Source: Thermoplasmata archaeon
GTDB lineage: Archaea > Thermoplasmatota > Thermoplasmata > UBA184
Direction: 5' to 3'
NCBI GenBank assembly: GCA_030042855.1
Contig: JASHYU010000241.1
Coordinates: 1-5,831 of the forward strand
DNA length: 5,831 nucleotides
The notes beneath the pieces were generated by a model that did no database searches, was not told the DNA's origin, and saw only the letters and a list, made by a program, of their open reading frames with translations. This document shows positions 314-5,822 of the stretch, piece by piece. Each line of letters opens with the position of its first letter. Position 1 is the first letter of the stretch. Both the position numbers and the translations under genes were made by a program.

Positions 314-339
314 CAGGGATGGGAGAATGGTGGACTCCC

Positions 340-1512
340 ATGGAGGCCCCTCGAGCCAAGGGGACCGGCGTATCCGGGATCGGACGTCCGCTCCTCCCGC
401 ACCGGGTCCGGTGGATCGGGGTCGCCTCGGCGCTGGTCGGCGCGGGGATCGTGATCCTCGCGTTCCTCTCGAGCCTCTACCCCGCCCCCTCGTTCTACCG
501 CTCGTTCCTCGACGGCTACGATCCCGCGTTCGACGGGGTCGCGGGGATCCTCCTCCTCGCCCTCGCGATCCGCCTCCGCGACCGGAGCCTCGTCGCGTGG
601 CTCGCGTCGCTGATCGCGCCGGCGCTGACGGTCTTCATCGCGATCCTCTCCCCGAACGTCTACTCCTTCACCGCCGCCGGGCTCGCGACGATGCTGGTCG
701 CGCTGATCTTCCCGTTCCGGCTCGGGTTCTTCCGCGGCTCGGCGACCGGCCCCGAGGCCCAGCAGATCCTCGTGCTCGTCGCCGCCCTCGTCTCGATGCT
801 CTTCGGCATCGTCGGCTCGCGCTGGCTCAGTTCCCAGTTCACCCCCCCGGTCTCGGGCTGGGCCGACTCGCTGTACTTCACCGTCGGCACGATCTCGACG
901 AACGGCACGAACTTCATCCCGCGCACCGACGGCGCCCGCCTGTTCGTCGTCGCGCTGATCCTCCTCGGCGTGGCAACGTTCTTATCCGCCGTGGTCGTCC
1001 TTTTCCTCCCGCTGCTCGAACGCCGGCTGGAGGCGCTCGCGTCGCGCCTGGAACGGGCCCAGATGGAGGAGCTCTCGGAGCACGTGATCATCTGCGGCGG
1101 ATCGTCCGAGGCGCGAGCGACCGCGGACCTCCTGCGGGAGCGCGGCGTGCGCTCCGTCATCGTCGTGGACGACCCGAAGCTGGTCGAGCTGTTCCGCAGC
1201 GAGGGGTACCGGGCCTTCCTCGGAGAACCGTCCTCGGAGGAGACGCTCCGCGACGTCGGCCTCCATCGCGCCCACGCGCTCGTCGTCGCCCAGGACTCGG
1301 ACGCCGAGAGCCTGCTCACGGTGATCACCGCGCGGGGCCTCGAGCCCGCGCTGCGGATCGTGGCGGTCGCGACGGCCCCCGCGTCCGCGTCGAAGCTGCG
1401 CAAGGCCGGGGCGAACGAGACGATCAGCCTCGTCAACGTGGCGGCCCGGTTCCTCAGCGAGGCGGCGGTGGGAGCCCCCGCGGGCGCCGCGTCCGCGACG
1501 GCGCCCGGCTGA
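340..1512 (+). CDS. Six-TM K+-channel-like protein with cytosolic RCK/TrkA-N domain; atypical filter
   Basis: A 390-residue membrane protein of the two-pore-helix/RCK channel superfamily. Predicted membrane helices are at about 25-47, 65-79, 84-104, 110-128, 141-162 and 200-225. A re-entrant pore loop at about 173-196 (GWADSLYFTV, later IPRTD) lies between the last two. A linker rich in Glu/Arg (227-247) leads to an N-lobe RCK/TrkA-N Rossmann domain (about 248-375): strand HVIIC, helix TADLLRERG, the acidic end of strand two (VIVVDD, 273-278), and AQDSDAESLLTVITAR (317-332), which closely resembles the usual family segment. There is no RCK-C lobe. The fourth helix lacks a voltage-sensor arginine ladder. 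Two signatures are altered: the filter position reads TNGTNF (187-192) instead of TVGYGD, and the GxGxxG loop reads GGSSEA (253-258). The superfamily is therefore secure, but potassium selectivity and nucleotide gating are not. ATG 340 is preferred over ATG 319 because of the TATA-like box at 307-313. It appears monocistronic, with a hairpin following. Confidence 0.85.
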   Translation: MEAPRAKGTGVSGIGRPLLPHRVRWIGVASALVGAGIVILAFLSSLYPAPSFYRSFLDGYDPAFDGVAGILLLALAIRLRDRSLVAWLASLIAPALTVFIAILSPNVYSFTAAGLATMLVALIFPFRLGFFRGSATGPEAQQILVLVAALVSMLFGIVGSRWLSSQFTPPVSGWADSLYFTVGTISTNGTNFIPRTDGARLFVVALILLGVATFLSAVVVLFLPLLERRLEALASRLERAQMEELSEHVIICGGSSEARATADLLRERGVRSVIVVDDPKLVELFRSEGYRAFLGEPSSEETLRDVGLHRAHALVVAQDSDAESLLTVITARGLEPALRIVAVATAPASASKLRKAGANETISLVNVAARFLSEAAVGAPAGAASATAPG

Positions 1513-1602: not shown

Positions 1603-2235
1603 ATGGCGCCGCCCAACCTGCCGGGACCGGGCCTTTCGGCTCCCGACCTGACCGGTCCCACGTCGATCCTCGAATGGCCGCTCGTCGGGACCCCGAGTCG
1701 CGGGCGCCGCCGCGCGCGCCCCTTCACCCACGTCCACCTCGAGGTCGACCTCCACCCCGACGTCGTCCGCGACGGGGGCCTCCCCGTCTTCCGCCAGATG
1801 GAGGCGTTGATCCGGGAGCGGCAGGTCGTCGAGATCGGCGACCTCCTCCGCCTCGTCGGCGAGGCGCTCCACGCGCTCGCTTCCGTGGGGTTCTCCCGGG
1901 TCGACCACTGGGAGGTGGAGCCCGGCGGCTGGCTCCCGCTCCCCGAGGCGACCCACCCGGGGATCGTCGAGCCGGTCGGCCACATGCTGCGGGCGCTCAA
2001 GGACGACCGGTGGAAGCAGGTCGGCGGAGCGCGCTCGTTCTCGGTCCGGCTCTCGGGCCGGCTCAAGTTCCGGGCCGACCTCACCGTCCGGCGCGTCCAC
2101 CGCGAGCGTCGTCACTCGGTGAGCCTCGACCTCCGGGGCACGCTCCGCCCGTCCGACGTGAAGGACGTGGCCGGTGCGCTCCGGACCCGGCTCCCCGTGC
2201 TCCGCTCGCAGGTCACCGAATACGCCTACGGTTGA
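1603..2235 (+). CDS. Soluble protein of unknown function (210 aa)
   Basis: I do not recognise a family. The 210-residue product has no signal peptide or membrane helix, so it is presumably cytosolic. A Pro/Gly-rich, likely disordered start (1-40) is followed by a strand (FTHVHLEVDL, 41-50), a helix near 60-72 and a longer helix at about 77-97 (EIGDLLRLVGEALHALASVG). After a Trp-rich turn (DHWEVEPGGW, 101-110) come another helix near 120-133, strands at about 144-151, 154-164 and 172-179, and a last helix near 182-197. The mixed alpha/beta pattern with a beta-hairpin would suit a ligand- or nucleic-acid-binding fold, but that is only inference. Coding status rests on the balanced composition; the other frames here are Arg/Pro-rich and low in complexity. 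The start is uncertain. ATG 1603 has neither a Shine-Dalgarno site nor a clear TATA box (only CGGCTTGA about 30 bases upstream), and the next in-frame ATG (1798) would delete the first strand. Confidence 0.75.
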   Translation: MAPPNLPGPGLSAPDLTGPTSILEWPLVGTPSRGRRRARPFTHVHLEVDLHPDVVRDGGLPVFRQMEALIRERQVVEIGDLLRLVGEALHALASVGFSRVDHWEVEPGGWLPLPEATHPGIVEPVGHMLRALKDDRWKQVGGARSFSVRLSGRLKFRADLTVRRVHRERRHSVSLDLRGTLRPSDVKDVAGALRTRLPVLRSQVTEYAYG

Positions 2236-2294: not shown

Positions 2295-3002
2295 ATGCTC
2301 GCGCTCTACGTTCCCGCCCTCGCCGTCGCCTTCGTCATCACGATGATCGAGATGACCGAGGTGGTGGCGCTGGTCTTCGCGCTCAGCGCCGACCACGCCT
2401 CGGTCGCGCACGGGGCGGCCGGGGCCGTCGCGGGCTGCGCGGTCGTCGCGCTGGTCGCGCTCGGGTCGGGCGCCCTCCTCCTCGCCCTGCCCCGGGACTA
2501 TCTGCTCGGGCCGGCCGCCATCACGCTCGCCGCCTTCGGCGTCTTCCTCTTCCGCAGCACGCTGCGGAGCTACCGCCGCGCGCGCGCTCCGCCCGGGACC
2601 GCCTTCCCACCCTCGCGATCCTCGACCGCCGTCCAGTTCGCGGGCGGGTTCTCGGTCGGGGTGATCGAATCCACGGAGGTGGTGGTCGTGCTGCTCGCGA
2701 TCGCGGCCGCGGGCTACGGATCGTCCGCGCTCGTGGGGGCGCTGGCCGGGGGCGCCGTGCTCGTCGGGGCGGCGCTGGCCGTGAACCAGCAGATCCGCCG
2801 CATCAAGGTCCCGTGGCTCAAGTGGGGGGCGACGTCGATGCTGTTCACGTTCTCGATCTTCTGGGCGGGCGAGGCGGCCGGGGTCGCCTGGCCGGGCGAC
2901 GACCTCTTCCTCGTCCCGATGTTCCTCGCCGGGCTCGGGATCGTCCGGGCGGGGATCGAGGGCCTGCTGCGGCGGACGACCCCTCGGACCGCCCCGGCGT
3001 GA
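2295..3002 (+). CDS. Multi-pass membrane protein with duplicated IExTEVV motif, putative metal-ion transporter
   Basis: A 235-residue, very hydrophobic protein with about six to seven predicted membrane helices (approximately 5-30, 38-65, 70-88, 116-138, 143-163, 176-196 and 203-222). The first and fourth helices carry the same motif, IEMTEVV (18-24) and IESTEVV (124-130), exactly 106 residues apart. This indicates two homologous halves joined by an Arg/Pro-rich loop (91-113). Paired acidic motifs in membrane helices are known from FTR1 iron permeases (REGLE) and GDT1/TMEM165 cation exchangers (ExGDK), and the ExxE spacing matches FTR1. A role in moving a metal cation is therefore reasonable, but the substrate and exact family are inferred. 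The second half ends in KWGATSMLFTFSIFWAGEA (177-195), which has no counterpart in the first half and includes Glu193 within the membrane. No other start codon lies close upstream of ATG 2295, and there is no Shine-Dalgarno site. The gene converges on the exporter operon with only 19 bases between stops. Confidence 0.75.
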   Translation: MLALYVPALAVAFVITMIEMTEVVALVFALSADHASVAHGAAGAVAGCAVVALVALGSGALLLALPRDYLLGPAAITLAAFGVFLFRSTLRSYRRARAPPGTAFPPSRSSTAVQFAGGFSVGVIESTEVVVVLLAIAAAGYGSSALVGALAGGAVLVGAALAVNQQIRRIKVPWLKWGATSMLFTFSIFWAGEAAGVAWPGDDLFLVPMFLAGLGIVRAGIEGLLRRTTPRTAPA

Positions 3003-3021: not shown

Positions 3022-3867
3022 TCAGTGACGCGGGGCGAGGGCCCGCCGGGCGAGGAACACCGCGAGCAGGAACATCGCGAGCGCCCAGCCGAAGAGCCCG
3101 AGGAGGTAGATGTCCGCCGAGTACGGGTAGTAGGCGGAGGCGCCCGCGAACAGGTTCTCGCGGAGGACGTTGACCGCGAGCGTGATCGGGTTGTACGACG
3201 CGACGTTCTTCAGCCAGTCGGGGAGGATCCCCCACGGATAGAGGGCCGCCGAGGTGAGCAGCACGGGGAGGTTGATCGCGTTGACGATCGCGAAGTACGT
3301 CTGCGGCTGCTCCAGGCTGAATCCGATCGCGATGAAGAGCGACGCGAACATCACCGAGAGGATCACGACCGCGGCGACGATCTCGAGCGCGCCGAGCGCG
3401 CTCAGCGACGCCGTGACCTCGAGGCCGCTCAGCCCGACGTGGCCGAGCAGGAGGGAAAGGCCGAGCACGAGGAAGGCGAGGCCGATCGGCTGGACCGATC
3501 CCGCGATGAGCCGGGCGCCGAAGATGACGGTCGGCGTGGCCGGCGACGCGCTGGTCCGCTTCAGCGTCCCGAAGAGCCGGTCGAAGATCACGTTCGCCCC
3601 GACGAAGAGGGTCGCCGTCACGGCGACGAAGCCGGTCATCCCGGCCGAGAAGTAGGAGAAGTACGACGGGGCGCCGCGGTAGAGCTGGAGGAAGACCGTC
3701 GCCGGGATCGGGTACGGGCTGAGCTTCGTGATGTTGTTGAGGTTGAACGCCTGCCCGAAGAGCACGAGGTAGAGGATCGGCAGGAGGAGCGACGTCACGA
3801 TCGCCTGGGGGTTGCGGGCGATCCGGAGGAGCTCGCGCTTGGTGAGCGCCCCGAGCTCCCGCATCAT
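3022..3867 (-). CDS. ABC-2 type exporter permease (DrrB-like)
   Basis: A 281-residue membrane subunit of an ABC-2 exporter, the partner of the ATPase encoded just upstream. It has a short cytosolic N-terminus with an amphipathic stretch (LTKRELLRIARNPQ, 8-21) and six predicted helices at about 22-39, 72-96, 113-141, 159-185, 190-212 and 252-274. Between helices five and six is the typical ABC-2 segment LPDWLKNVASYNPITLAVN (215-233). The length and layout match DrrB/NodJ-type permeases. The outer loop between helices one and two (about 40-71) is relatively long and Tyr/Pro-rich and may contribute to substrate recognition. The first of two adjacent ATGs (3867, then 3864) is chosen because GGAGGT lies seven bases upstream of it; it overlaps the ATPase stop as ATGA. 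The substrate cannot be read from sequence; drugs, lipids or polysaccharide are all handled by this family. Confidence 0.92.
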   Translation of the reverse strand: MMRELGALTKRELLRIARNPQAIVTSLLLPILYLVLFGQAFNLNNITKLSPYPIPATVFLQLYRGAPSYFSYFSAGMTGFVAVTATLFVGANVIFDRLFGTLKRTSASPATPTVIFGARLIAGSVQPIGLAFLVLGLSLLLGHVGLSGLEVTASLSALGALEIVAAVVILSVMFASLFIAIGFSLEQPQTYFAIVNAINLPVLLTSAALYPWGILPDWLKNVASYNPITLAVNVLRENLFAGASAYYPYSADIYLLGLFGWALAMFLLAVFLARRALAPRH

Positions 3868-4877
3868 CGGCGGGACCTCCCGAACGCCTGGGAGACCTGG
3901 CCGATCCGCACCGCGCGGTCGGTCGCGGTCACGCCGTCCTCCCGGTACTCGCGGCCGGTGAACTCGAGGAAGACCTCGTCGAGGCTGGGGCGCTTCAGCG
4001 AGACCGAGGACAGCGCGACGCCCGCCTGGGCGCACGCCTGGACGAGCCGAGGGATCAGCTGCTCCCCCCGCGGCGCCTTCACGCGGTACGCGTCCTCCTG
4101 GACGGAGACCGACACGACGCCCGGGACCGCCTTCAGCGCCGCCTCCACGGCCGGGTCCACCCGGGCCGTCCGGATCGTCACGATGTCGCCCCCGAGGCCG
4201 TCCTTGAGCTCGGACGGAGTGCCGGTCGCGACGAGGTGGCCGTGGTCGATGATCGCGAGGCGCTCGCAGATCTGATCGGCCTCGTCGAGGTAGTGCGTGG
4301 TGACGAAGACGGTCATGCCGTGGTCCTTGCGGAGCTCCTGGACGTAGCGCCAGAACCCGGCGCGTCCCTGGGGGTCGAGGCCGAGCGTCGGCTCGTCGAG
4401 GAAGAGGACCCGCGGCGAGTGGATGATCCCGACGGCGAGCTCGAGGCGACGCCGCATCCCGCCCGAGTACGTCCTCGCGAGCCGGTCCGCGGCGTCCCCG
4501 ATCTGCATGCGCTCGAGCAGGGAGTCGACGCGGGCCCGCACTTCCCCGCGGGGGACGCCGAAGAGGGCCGCCGCGAGCTCGAGGTTCTCCCGGCCGGTGA
4601 GATCGCTGTCGGCGGTGGACTCCTGGAAGACGAGGCCGATCCGTCGCTTGATCTCCATGGGGTGCTGGAAGACGTCGACCCCGTCGACCGTCGCGCGGCC
4701 CGCGGTCGGGGCCAACTGGGCCGTGAGCACCGACACCGTGGTGGTCTTCCCGGCCCCGTTCGGCCCGAGGAACCCGAACGCTTCGCCCTGGTTCACCGAG
4801 AACGAGATGTTGTCGACGGCCTTGACCGTCCCGTTGTAGGTCTTCGAGAGCCCCTCGACGTGGATCGACTCGCCCAT
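3864..4877 (-). CDS. ABC-2 exporter ATPase (DrrA-like)
   Basis: A 337-residue nucleotide-binding subunit that would power export through the permease encoded directly downstream. All the ATPase motifs are intact: Walker A GPNGAGKTT (38-46), Q-loop Gln85, signature YSGGM (137-141) followed by RRRLELA, Walker B VLFLDEP (157-163), D-loop GLDP (166-169) and the switch His195. An accessory C-terminal domain (about 230-337) contains PSLDEVFLEFTGRE (297-310), characteristic of the daunorubicin-resistance DrrA-type ATPases. A basic tail follows (315-337). Start ATG 4877 is preferred to the in-frame ATG at 4940: the family normally begins a few residues before the first strand (here SIHVEGLSKTY), and an AT-rich TACGTTAT element lies about 32 bases upstream. 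The stop overlaps the permease start by four bases, implying translational coupling and fixed stoichiometry. Drug resistance should not be assumed, because the family also exports lipids and other compounds. Confidence 0.95.
   Translation of the reverse strand: MGESIHVEGLSKTYNGTVKAVDNISFSVNQGEAFGFLGPNGAGKTTTVSVLTAQLAPTAGRATVDGVDVFQHPMEIKRRIGLVFQESTADSDLTGRENLELAAALFGVPRGEVRARVDSLLERMQIGDAADRLARTYSGGMRRRLELAVGIIHSPRVLFLDEPTLGLDPQGRAGFWRYVQELRKDHGMTVFVTTHYLDEADQICERLAIIDHGHLVATGTPSELKDGLGGDIVTIRTARVDPAVEAALKAVPGVVSVSVQEDAYRVKAPRGEQLIPRLVQACAQAGVALSSVSLKRPSLDEVFLEFTGREYREDGVTATDRAVRIGQVSQAFGRSRR
3875..3880 (-). promoter_or_regulatory. Shine-Dalgarno site of the permease gene
   Basis: GGAGGT on the minus strand lies inside the end of the ATPase gene. 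It is seven bases from the ATG at 3867 and ten from the one at 3864, so it favours 3867. It is the only strong Shine-Dalgarno sequence before any gene in the window, as expected for an internal operon gene in an organism whose first genes are leaderless. Confidence 0.75.
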
Positions 4878-4905
4878 GGGTCGGTTCCCACTAACCGTTC
4901 GCCCG

Positions 4906-4913
4906 ATAACGTA
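4906..4913 (-). promoter_or_regulatory. TATA-like element of the ABC exporter operon
   Basis: On the minus strand the sequence reads TACGTTAT, centred about 32 bases upstream of ATG 4877, which would give a leader of only a few bases. The match to a TATA box is moderate because of the internal CG. The symmetric ATATAG element near 5030 could also be read on this strand, as a more distant alternative promoter. Confidence 0.4.
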
Positions 4914-5028
4914 CGGTGTCGAAGAGGCTCCGGATTGCACCGGCCGACCCGTCCGCGGACCCCCCGGGGCTCGCCCTCCGGTCCGCGCGTCGGATCGCTC
5001 GCACGACCGGTCCGAACCGGCCCGAACG

Positions 5029-5126: not shown

Positions 5127-5822
5127 ATGGCGACTTCGTGCCCGTCCTGTGGTGCCGAGATGGAGTTCTCGGAGCGTGCGGTGGTCCTCCGGTCGGGGAC
5201 CTGCCCGTCGTGCGCGAAGGAGTTCGCGTTCGTGGAAGGGACGACGCTCGCCGGCCACCTGCCCGAGGGCGGCGAGGTCGAAGCGCCCCCACCGGTCGGC
5301 GCGCCGGCGGTCGTCGCGGGCGAAGGGCCGGAGTGCCCGACGTGCGGCGGTCCGCTCGAGGTCCGATCCGGTCGGGACGGGGCGCTGCTCGTGCTCTGCG
5401 AAGACTGCGAGACCCGGACCGTCTATCGGCCCGAGGGCGAACGAGGGGCGCGCGATCGCCGAAGCTCGGCGCCCGAGGGCCGACGGCCCGAGGGGGACTT
5501 CGAACCGCGGAGCCGACCGTGCCGTCGGTGCGGAGCGCCCCTCCGCTTCTCCACCGGCGAGGACGGCATGCTGGTCGGGGAGTGCGACTCGTGCGGGAAC
5601 CGCTTCACCCTCCCACCGCGACGGGATTCCGGCGGGGCCGGCGGGTACCGCGGCCGGCCCGGGGCCGATCGCGGCGGGTATCGGGACCGCGGGGGCAAGC
5701 GGCCCAACTTCCAGAACCGCCGGCGACCCGCGTACGGAGGTCCGTCCCGGCGCCCGAGAGACGGGAACGGGGACGGCGACGATCGGCGGGACCGACGGCG
5801 CCGGAGCCGCCGGGACGACTGA
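5127..5822 (+). CDS. Triple zinc-ribbon protein with Arg/Gly/Asp-rich C-terminal tail
   Basis: A 231-residue protein with three CxxC...CxxC zinc ribbons: Cys5/8 with 26/29, Cys70/73 with 91/94, and Cys132/135 with 153/156. In all three, exactly 17 residues separate the two CxxC knuckles, so the ribbons look like copies of one module. Each should bind one structural zinc. The linkers are disordered: an acidic then Pro/Ala/Val-rich one (47-66) and a highly charged Arg/Glu one (101-130). From about residue 165 to the end, the protein is a low-complexity Arg/Gly/Asp tail with GGYRGR, DRGGYRDRGG and a final RRDRRRRSRRDD. This resembles RGG-type RNA-binding tails, so binding to RNA or a ribosome/transcription complex is a fair inference, but no specific function can be assigned. 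ATG 5127 begins just before the first ribbon; the frame upstream has no family-like sequence. The gene is divergent from the ABC exporter operon. No terminator is visible in the nine bases left before the window end. Confidence 0.85.
   Translation: MATSCPSCGAEMEFSERAVVLRSGTCPSCAKEFAFVEGTTLAGHLPEGGEVEAPPPVGAPAVVAGEGPECPTCGGPLEVRSGRDGALLVLCEDCETRTVYRPEGERGARDRRSSAPEGRRPEGDFEPRSRPCRRCGAPLRFSTGEDGMLVGECDSCGNRFTLPPRRDSGGAGGYRGRPGADRGGYRDRGGKRPNFQNRRRPAYGGPSRRPRDGNGDGDDRRDRRRRSRRDD

What the first reader, a model, noticed from the sequence alone, without database searches (positions are those of the whole stretch)
898..915. Channel with a non-canonical selectivity filter (TNGTNF instead of TVGYGD)
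The pore loop is otherwise well conserved: DSLYFTV before the filter and IPRTDGARLF after it match K+ channels of this superfamily. However, the six filter residues (187-192) read T-N-G-T-N-F, keeping only the first Thr and the first Gly, and one residue is missing before the conserved Pro. The flanks stay in frame on both sides, so a frameshift is unlikely. The coding DNA contains ACGAAC twice nine bases apart, hinting at a tiny local duplication. Known K+ selectivity depends on the backbone of TVGYGD, so this protein may be non-selective, selective for another ion, or a non-conducting sensor.
Basis: partly seen in the sequence, partly recalled or inferred. Interest (0 to 1): 0.7.

Follow-up and report, generated by a model that had tools for sequence, protein, structure and literature searches.

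The report
Archaeal channel family with shortened filter
A family of potassium-channel-like proteins in some archaea carries an ion filter that is one residue shorter than, and different from, the standard potassium filter, so these channels may let several positive ions through rather than potassium alone; this is predicted from sequence, not measured.

Summary
The ORF at 319-1512 encodes a 6TM + RCK channel with filter S193-TNGTNF-IP201, one residue shorter than TxGYGDxxP. It is neither error nor decay: all 159 distinct family proteins listed (window's included) keep ST-x-G-xxxx-P (x = N 147, I 9, T 2, D 1). In 22 of 22 DNA orthologues covering it, S, T, N, G are fixed while S, T, G codons vary; dN/dS to the nearest relative is 0.12. 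The 30 matches ranked next in the class search, plus L004, are canonical TxG[YFL]GD; two relatives from a phylum search are not (TTLGGSSYEP). Short-filter proteins form one clade with filter columns removed (99/100). Nine of ten checked genomes also hold a GYG-type channel.

A filter-only profile against the PDB ranks four NaK mutants with glutamate-receptor-like filters first, gap-free; a canonical control does not. TNG/NNG also occurs in K+-selective KdpA. Best reading: an RCK-gated cation channel keeping only the inner filter sites, weakly or non-K+-selective; a KdpA-like K+-selective filter is the main rival. New variant of a known kind.

The parts
319..1512 (+). Channel gene: 397 aa from ATG 319 (390 aa from ATG 340); 6TM + pore loop + RCK (TrkA_N) domain
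   Evidence: PF07885 27.3 bits (cut-off 22.5), PF02254 85.6 bits (cut-off 23.8); AlphaFold2 mean pLDDT 89.9
397..729 (+). Four N-terminal helices (residues 27-53, 68-88, 91-110, 114-137), S1-S4-like
   Evidence: AlphaFold2 helices; that they cross the membrane is inferred
751..825 (+). Outer pore helix S5 (residues 145-169)
   Evidence: PF07885 match spans residues 165-228
856..894 (+). Pore helix (residues 180-192)
   Evidence: W181 and T191 116/116 in A2
895..921 (+). Shortened selectivity filter S193-T-N-G-T-N-F-I-P201 (the finding is 898-915)
928..1068 (+). Inner helix S6 plus linker (residues 204-250)
   Evidence: G217, V218, F221, L222 and A224 invariant in A2
1084..1428 (+). RCK / TrkA_N Rossmann domain (residues 256-370); no TrkA_C match
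1603..2235 (+). Downstream ORF of unknown function, same strand; a homologue lies downstream on the channel's strand in 10 of 21 related loci (one of the ten a weak match)
   Evidence: No Pfam match at E<=1. Conserved neighbour only; no functional link shown
2295..3002 (+). OFeT_1 (iron/lead permease-type) gene; homologue follows in 7 of 21 related loci
   Evidence: PF16955 84.3 bits

Best explanation
A tetrameric cation channel of the K+-channel superfamily, gated from the cytoplasm by an RCK ring (ligand unknown), in which the filter has lost the GYG tyrosine and been rebuilt as T-N-G-[S/T]-x-[Y/F]-x-P, x most often N or E. T194 and N195 should still form the two inner sites (S3, S4). The outer half (S1, S2) is gone and is probably a wider vestibule lined by residues 197-199. 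The channel should therefore pass K+ and Na+ with weak or no preference. Members with E or D at 198 may also bind or pass Ca2+; the window protein has N there. Shown: sequence, conservation, single origin, paralogy to GYG channels, predicted monomer fold. Inferred: tetramer, site count, selectivity, gating.
For: Filter length and ST-x-G-xxxx-P are fixed in 159 of 159 listed family proteins; the gene is under purifying selection. The family is one clade apart from canonical relatives. The four best PDB matches of a 31-column filter profile are NaK mutants with TTVGSDISP (7oph), TTVGSELMP (7oq1) and TTVGCDISP (7oor, 7pa0), gap-free, E 1.5e-5 to 1.1e-4; the next NaK and the MthK entries score E 1.1e-3 or worse, most with one inserted residue. 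A canonical-filter control puts GYG channels first, and none of those four mutants is among its best 60 of 308. The 7oor sequence is also that of 8ayp and 8ayq, which PMC9976283 names as NaK with DGNF replaced by C-DI of the AMPA receptor; there monovalent ions bind S3 and S4, and Ca2+ binds S5, the vestibule and the Asp at S0. NaK itself (TVGDG) forms only S3/S4 and is non-selective (PMC8689586; PMC9822992). Nine of ten checked genomes keep a GYG-type channel as well.
Against: No measurement and no tetramer model. N195 is V in the engineered NaK filters, so the parallel is not exact. KdpA, strongly K+-selective, has TNG and NNGSAF in its filter repeats, and its selectivity is laid mainly to the S3 site (PMC12629597), which this family could also form. 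Position 198 is not conserved, which argues against a fixed divalent site.
Confidence: 0.55

Rival explanations
1. K+-selective channel with a KdpA/Ktr-like short filter: the T-N-G backbone forms one tight S3 site, so K+ is still preferred although GYG is gone.
For: 20 of 116 family members match Pfam KdpA at E<=0.05. Of ten members scanned singly, three of which I had picked for an earlier KdpA annotation, those three score above its curated cut-off, over the pore (residues 147-230 against model positions 410-495). E. coli KdpA has TNG ending at G232 and NNGSAFAG around G468. G232 lies in the middle of the KdpA filter and G232D loses selectivity (PMC12629597). KdpA is not among the 25 families shown for 40 of the 120 canonical-side proteins, so it matches 5 of those 40 at most.
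Against: The window protein itself has no KdpA match at E<=1. The reverse test, family pore profile against E. coli KdpA, gives 7.1 bits for the best stretch but -2.1 for the whole protein, not above shuffled KdpA (468 of 500 shuffles reported, up to 7.0). KdpA lacks the family's fixed Pro and works in a pump whose slow turnover its authors connect with telling K+ from Rb+. KdpA's map shows density at all four sites, S3 strongest, so it is not a clear example of a one-site filter.
Confidence: 0.27
2. Channel selective for another ion (for example Ca2+), like the plant RCK channel CASTOR.
For: CASTOR has an RCK gating ring, lacks TVGYG and prefers Ca2+ (PMC6697748). 26 of 116 members have E or D at 198.
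Against: CASTOR's critical acidic residue has no fixed counterpart here; the window has N198 and 90 of 116 members lack an acid there.
Confidence: 0.08
3. Non-conducting RCK sensor with a vestigial pore.
For: No channel with this exact filter has been shown to conduct in any paper that I saw.
Against: Filter, pore-helix and S6 residues are among the invariant columns; a dead pore would hardly keep STxG and P in 159 of 159.
Confidence: 0.08
4. Sequencing error or decaying gene.
For: The protein is known from one contig of 5831 bases and no genome is held for it.
Against: Same filter in a separate MAG and in the whole family; dN/dS 0.12; the in-frame stops flagged in 4 orthologues lie at or just after the natural C-terminus.
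Confidence: 0.01

Closest known systems
MthK (archaeal Ca2+-gated RCK K+ channel)
   Same: Best solved match over pore + RCK (E 2.5e-21; Foldseek rank 1)
   Different: MthK filter is TVGYGDYSP; MthK lacks the four extra N-terminal helices (recalled)
E. coli Kch (NCBIfam PRK10537)
   Different: 137.8 bits against a cut-off of 425; Kch has a canonical filter (recalled)
NaK mutants with glutamate-receptor-like filters (7oph, 7oq1, 7oor, 7pa0)
   Same: Same filter length, TxGxxxxP, gap-free best PDB matches of the filter profile
   Different: Engineered; V not N after the Thr. Only the 7oor sequence is tied to the AMPA receptor by a paper that I saw (PMC9976283); for the other three this rests on their letters and recall. 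NaK has 2 TM helices and no RCK domain (recalled)
NaK/CNG-type chimeras (6fiz, 3k0d, 4zbm)
   Same: Also fit the filter profile without a gap
   Different: Weaker, E 0.02-0.06; CNG filter TIGETPPP (PMC5052707). That 3k0d and 4zbm are such chimeras is recalled
KdpA (K+ subunit of KdpFABC)
   Same: TNG (ending at G232) and NNGSAF (around G468) motifs; weak Pfam match of some members
   Different: Single chain with four unlike repeats, part of an ATP-driven pump (for the pump); no match of the window protein
NirBac channels
   Same: Prokaryotic K+-channel relatives with non-canonical filters; NirBac1.1 and 1.2 non-selective; NirBac2.1 filter reads TTGTD (PMC4607889)
   Different: Kir-type cytoplasmic domain; NirBac2.1 itself was not assayed; three genes plus two near-copies rather than a broad family
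CASTOR/POLLUX/DMI1
   Same: RCK-gated channels without TVGYG, earlier suggested to be K+ channels (PMC6697748)
   Different: Filter AD(S/A)GNHA, Ca2+-preferring, plants
NaKTs of Tsukamurella
   Same: Natural non-GYG filter, non-selective (PMC5052707)
   Different: LPMGNGPLSP filter, 2TM, described as fairly specific to that one channel

Membership tests
K+ channel pore superfamily (Pfam Ion_trans_2) | Profile match over S5-P-S6 | tested here: met
   27.3 bits against cut-off 22.5; 116 of 116 A2 members match at E<=0.05
K+-selective channels | TxGYG-type filter | tested here: not met
   STNGTNFIP, one residue shorter
K+-selective channels | Measured K+ selectivity | not testable with these tools
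RCK-gated channels | TrkA_N / RCK domain after S6 | tested here: met
MthK family | 2TM pore, RCK with C-terminal lobe (TrkA_C), canonical filter (definition recalled) | tested here: not met
   Six long predicted helices besides the pore helix, no TrkA_C match, filter differs
Kch (PRK10537 equivalog) | NCBIfam cut-off of 425 bits | tested here: not met
   137.8 bits
NaK | TVGDGN filter in a 2TM channel without RCK | tested here: not met
Ionotropic glutamate receptors | Ligand-binding domain around an inverted pore | tested here: not met
   No such domain among Pfam matches at E<=1; only the filter resembles engineered mimics
KdpA | Pfam KdpA match; four unlike P-loop repeats in one chain | tested here: not met
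   Window protein: no match at E<=1; one pore loop per chain. Some members match weakly
NirBac/KirBac | Kir cytoplasmic domain | tested here: not met
   No such domain among Pfam matches at E<=1
Non-selective cation channels | Na+ and K+ permeate alike | not testable with these tools
   Inferred only

The most novel reading that the evidence does not exclude
A whole family of archaeal RCK channels evolved once, by losing the GYG tyrosine and placing N before the filter Gly, a natural homotetrameric version of the short filter otherwise known from glutamate receptors (and, in its TNG motif, from KdpA). It would be a second, natural solution to filter design inside the K+-channel superfamily, with residue 198 (N, E, T, D, Q) as a natural dial for divalent permeation.
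Probability: 0.4. Interest if true: 0.7.

Novelty: new variant of a known kind. Interest (0 to 1): 0.52.

Why it matters
How many filter sites a tetrameric channel needs for K+ selectivity has been studied with engineered NaK mutants (recalled; the title of Derebe et al. 2011 appears in the reference lists seen). This family is a natural experiment of the same design: 159 listed proteins with a fixed one-residue-short filter, natural variation at 195 and 198, and a GYG-type channel beside it in nine of ten genomes checked. It also warns that 'voltage-gated potassium channel', the label that many members carry in their sources, may be wrong about the ion.

Tried and rejected
Sequencing error, frameshift and decay: rejected. 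Local ACGAAC duplication: rejected. KcsA-type E71-D80 pairing: position 190 is A/T/S/G in A2 and E in many canonical relatives; noted, not pursued.

Viral source: a scan of viral contigs with alignment A2 gave 33 pattern matches, none a relative. Plasmids: 54 records with matches, none covering 80% of the query; the two haloarchaeal ones that I read have TVGYGD. Distribution: 20 family matches in 400 class genomes, 22 in 106 order genomes, one of them cut off by a contig end before the filter (L038), 6 in 389 phylum genomes; the three samples overlap. 'Class', 'order' and 'phylum' are those of G001, the genome of the nearest relative; no genome is held for the window itself.

Is TTLGGSSYEP (L088, L089) an intermediate on the way to the short filter? 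These two score slightly better against the window protein than the best canonical relative L027, but the tree leaves their place unresolved. Family pore profile against E. coli KdpA: not above shuffles. Filter length alone does not explain: NaK/CNG-type chimeras also fit without a gap but rank lower. A tetramer could not be modelled. Glutamate receptors themselves were not among the PDB matches shown. No paper on this family was among the rows listed in searches (open-access library only, top rows only); that does not show that none exists. The 2023 NaK-mutant paper by Minniberger et al. is not held; I know it only from passages in PMC9976283 and PMC11427812.

Rows dropped or not seen: searches list 120 of 172 and 120 of 135 hits; the rest were not seen. 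A2 leaves out P0002 (the window's own copy) and P0041, P0044, P0090 and P0094 of the first 121. The tree leaves out L001, L005 (same gene as L007), L002, L003, L006 and the truncated L038, and its output warns of long branches (L004, L054, L047, L058, L027). The tree uses 38 of the 147 N-type proteins, all 12 others and 10 canonical ones; its output warns of long branches too (P0181, P0182).

Full report
WHAT IS THERE. The window carries a 397-aa ORF at 319-1512 with an Ion_trans_2 pore and a TrkA_N (RCK) domain. AlphaFold2 on a 116-row alignment gives mean pLDDT 89.9, with six long helices besides a pore helix at 180-192, and an RCK fold; the block 191-200 has pLDDT 95. The nearest solved fold is MthK. 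Codons 898-915 read T-N-G-T-N-F as reported, in frame.

IT IS A FAMILY TRAIT. A search of 5.8 billion proteins gave 172 hits, the best 120 listed, one of them the window's own protein. A second search from a distant member gave 135 hits, 120 listed, 39 of them new. The 159 distinct listed proteins (window's included) all read S-T-x-G-x-x-x-x-P, with x = N in 147, I in 9, T in 2 and D in 1. In alignment A2 (116 rows) position 197 is S 77, T 29, A 9, P 1; position 198 is N 65, E 21, T 7, D 5, Q 4, others the rest; position 199 is Y 64, F 41, I 11. In the DNA of the 22 sequences that cover the filter (window, L007-L026, L037), S193, T194, N195 and G196 never change although codons do (S193 TCG 14/TCC 8, T194 ACG 11/ACC 11, G196 four codons; N195 is AAC in all 22). 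Against the nearest relative, window dN is 0.045 and dS 0.375. The more distant dN/dS values in that call (0.39-0.69) rest on dS of 0.60-0.90 in GC-rich DNA and I do not lean on them.

WHERE IT CAME FROM. The 30 matches ranked next after the family in the class search, plus L004 from the nearest relative's genome, all have TxG[YFL]GD, one residue longer; the alignment gap falls on the middle residue of G[YFL]G. With the filter columns left out, the short-filter proteins form one clade: 22 against 31 rows, support 99/100, one change; 50 against 10 rows, 100/100; 22 against 23 rows, 100/100. Inside the family N to I, N to T and N to D need one change each. Not every relative outside is canonical. 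Two from the phylum search, L088 and L089, which score slightly better than the best canonical relative, read TTLGGSSYEP; their place in the tree is unresolved. Of the 120 proteins listed from a search with the nearest canonical relative L027, 98 fit a GYG-type pattern; by eye 12 more are xxGYGD with other flanks, 9 are non-canonical in other ways and one is a fragment. None of these reads as the short STxG form. L084 reads TTIGLYVPNGGNF.

AN EXTRA PARALOGUE. 17 of the 20 family-bearing genomes show a second match to the query. I looked at ten: nine have TxGYGD (L004; L079-L083 and L085-L087) and one, G240, has TIGLYVPN (L084). So these archaea mostly seem to keep an ordinary GYG-type channel beside this one.

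HOW IT MIGHT WORK. In K+ channels the TVGYG backbone and the Thr hydroxyl make sites S1-S4; NaK (TVGDG) makes only S3 and S4 and is non-selective (PMC8689586, passages; PMC9822992, passages). The family keeps the residues equivalent to the inner sites (T194, N195, G196) and loses the Tyr. A 31-column profile of the filter region against all PDB sequences puts four NaK mutants first (7oph, 7oq1, 7oor, 7pa0; E 1.5e-5 to 1.1e-4), with TTVGSDISP, TTVGSELMP and TTVGCDISP aligned without a gap. Other NaK and MthK entries follow from E 1.1e-3, most with one inserted residue; NaK/CNG-type chimeras such as 6fiz and 3k0d also fit without a gap but at E 0.03-0.06. The same kind of profile from ten canonical relatives ranks K2P, TOK and Kv4 channels first, with none of the four mutants among the best 60 of 308. 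The C-DI mutant, whose sequence 7oor shares with 8ayp and 8ayq, was made by replacing DGNF of NaK with C-DI of the AMPA receptor. In crystals monovalent ions sit at S3 and S4, and Ca2+ at S5, in the vestibule and at the Asp at S0; the AMPA receptor pore is described there as non-selective for monovalent cations (PMC9976283, section 8 and passages). PMC11427812 (passages) mentions such NaK mutants together with the words 'nonselective tetrameric cation channels', in a sentence that may refer to the receptors. That 7oph and 7oq1 copy glutamate-receptor filters I infer from their letters and recall. By analogy the window channel should be weakly or non-selective among monovalent cations, and members with E or D at 198 may also handle Ca2+.

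THE RIVAL THAT MATTERS. Asn before the filter Gly is unusual for channels but known in KdpA: E. coli KdpA has TNG ending at G232 and NNGSAFAG around G468 (that G468 is a filter residue is recalled). Some family members match Pfam KdpA over the pore: three of ten scanned singly are above its cut-off, the three that I had picked for an earlier KdpA annotation, and 20 of 116 match at E<=0.05. The window protein does not, and the reverse comparison is not above shuffles. KdpA is strongly K+-selective, mainly through a tight S3 site, though its map shows density at all four sites; its authors connect its slow turnover with the ability to tell K+ from Rb+ (PMC12629597, passages). A K+-preferring short filter is therefore possible, and I give it 0.27.

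PRECEDENTS. NirBac channels (PMC4607889, passages) and NaKTs (PMC5052707, outline and passages) show that prokaryotic K+-channel relatives with rebuilt filters can be non-selective. CASTOR (PMC6697748, passages) shows that an RCK-gated channel without TVGYG can prefer Ca2+ after having been suggested to be a K+ channel. A broad family with a single-origin, one-residue-short filter was not described in any paper that I saw (searches; listed rows only).

SURROUNDINGS. A homologue of the ORF 1603-2235 (no Pfam match) lies downstream on the channel's strand in 10 of 21 related loci examined, 37-275 bases from the end of the channel match in 6 of them; the match in L060 is weak. An OFeT_1 permease gene follows in 7. 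Several of the other loci end too soon to tell. This is a conserved neighbourhood and no more.

LIMITS. Selectivity, stoichiometry and ligand are inferred. Genome counts come from unnamed, possibly incomplete genomes. The taxon is known only as Thermoplasmata, from the names of relatives.

Mended: the neighbour count (10, not 11, of 21), the claim about the best-scoring outside relatives (L088 and L089 are exceptions), the KdpA turnover argument, the identity of the NaK mutants, and the ambiguous sentence in PMC11427812.

Noticed in passing
L088, L089 (genomes G439, G444): RCK-channel relatives, about 31% identical, with a full-length but non-GYG filter TTLGGSSYEP; place in the tree relative to the short-filter clade unresolved.
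   Followed up: partly
L084 (G240:C7): Second RCK-channel match of a family-bearing genome has yet another filter, TTIGLYVPNGGNF.
   Followed up: no
P0147, P0149-P0151, P0153, P0156-P0159: Nested subclade of the family with STIG instead of STNG, same short length.
   Followed up: partly
window 1603-2235 and 2295-3002: Conserved neighbour pair (unknown protein, OFeT_1 permease) downstream of the channel in several related loci.
   Followed up: partly
P0187, P0192, P0200, P0206, P0207, P0209, P0227, P0252, P0266: Other RCK-channel relatives with assorted non-canonical filters such as TVGFSD, TVGFQV and TLGSYP.
   Followed up: no
window 3022-4940 (-) and 5127-5822 (+): Drr-like ABC exporter pair (the ATPase above the NCBIfam drrA cut-off, the permease below that of drrB) and a zinc-ribbon protein with an Arg/Gly-rich tail; not studied.
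   Followed up: no
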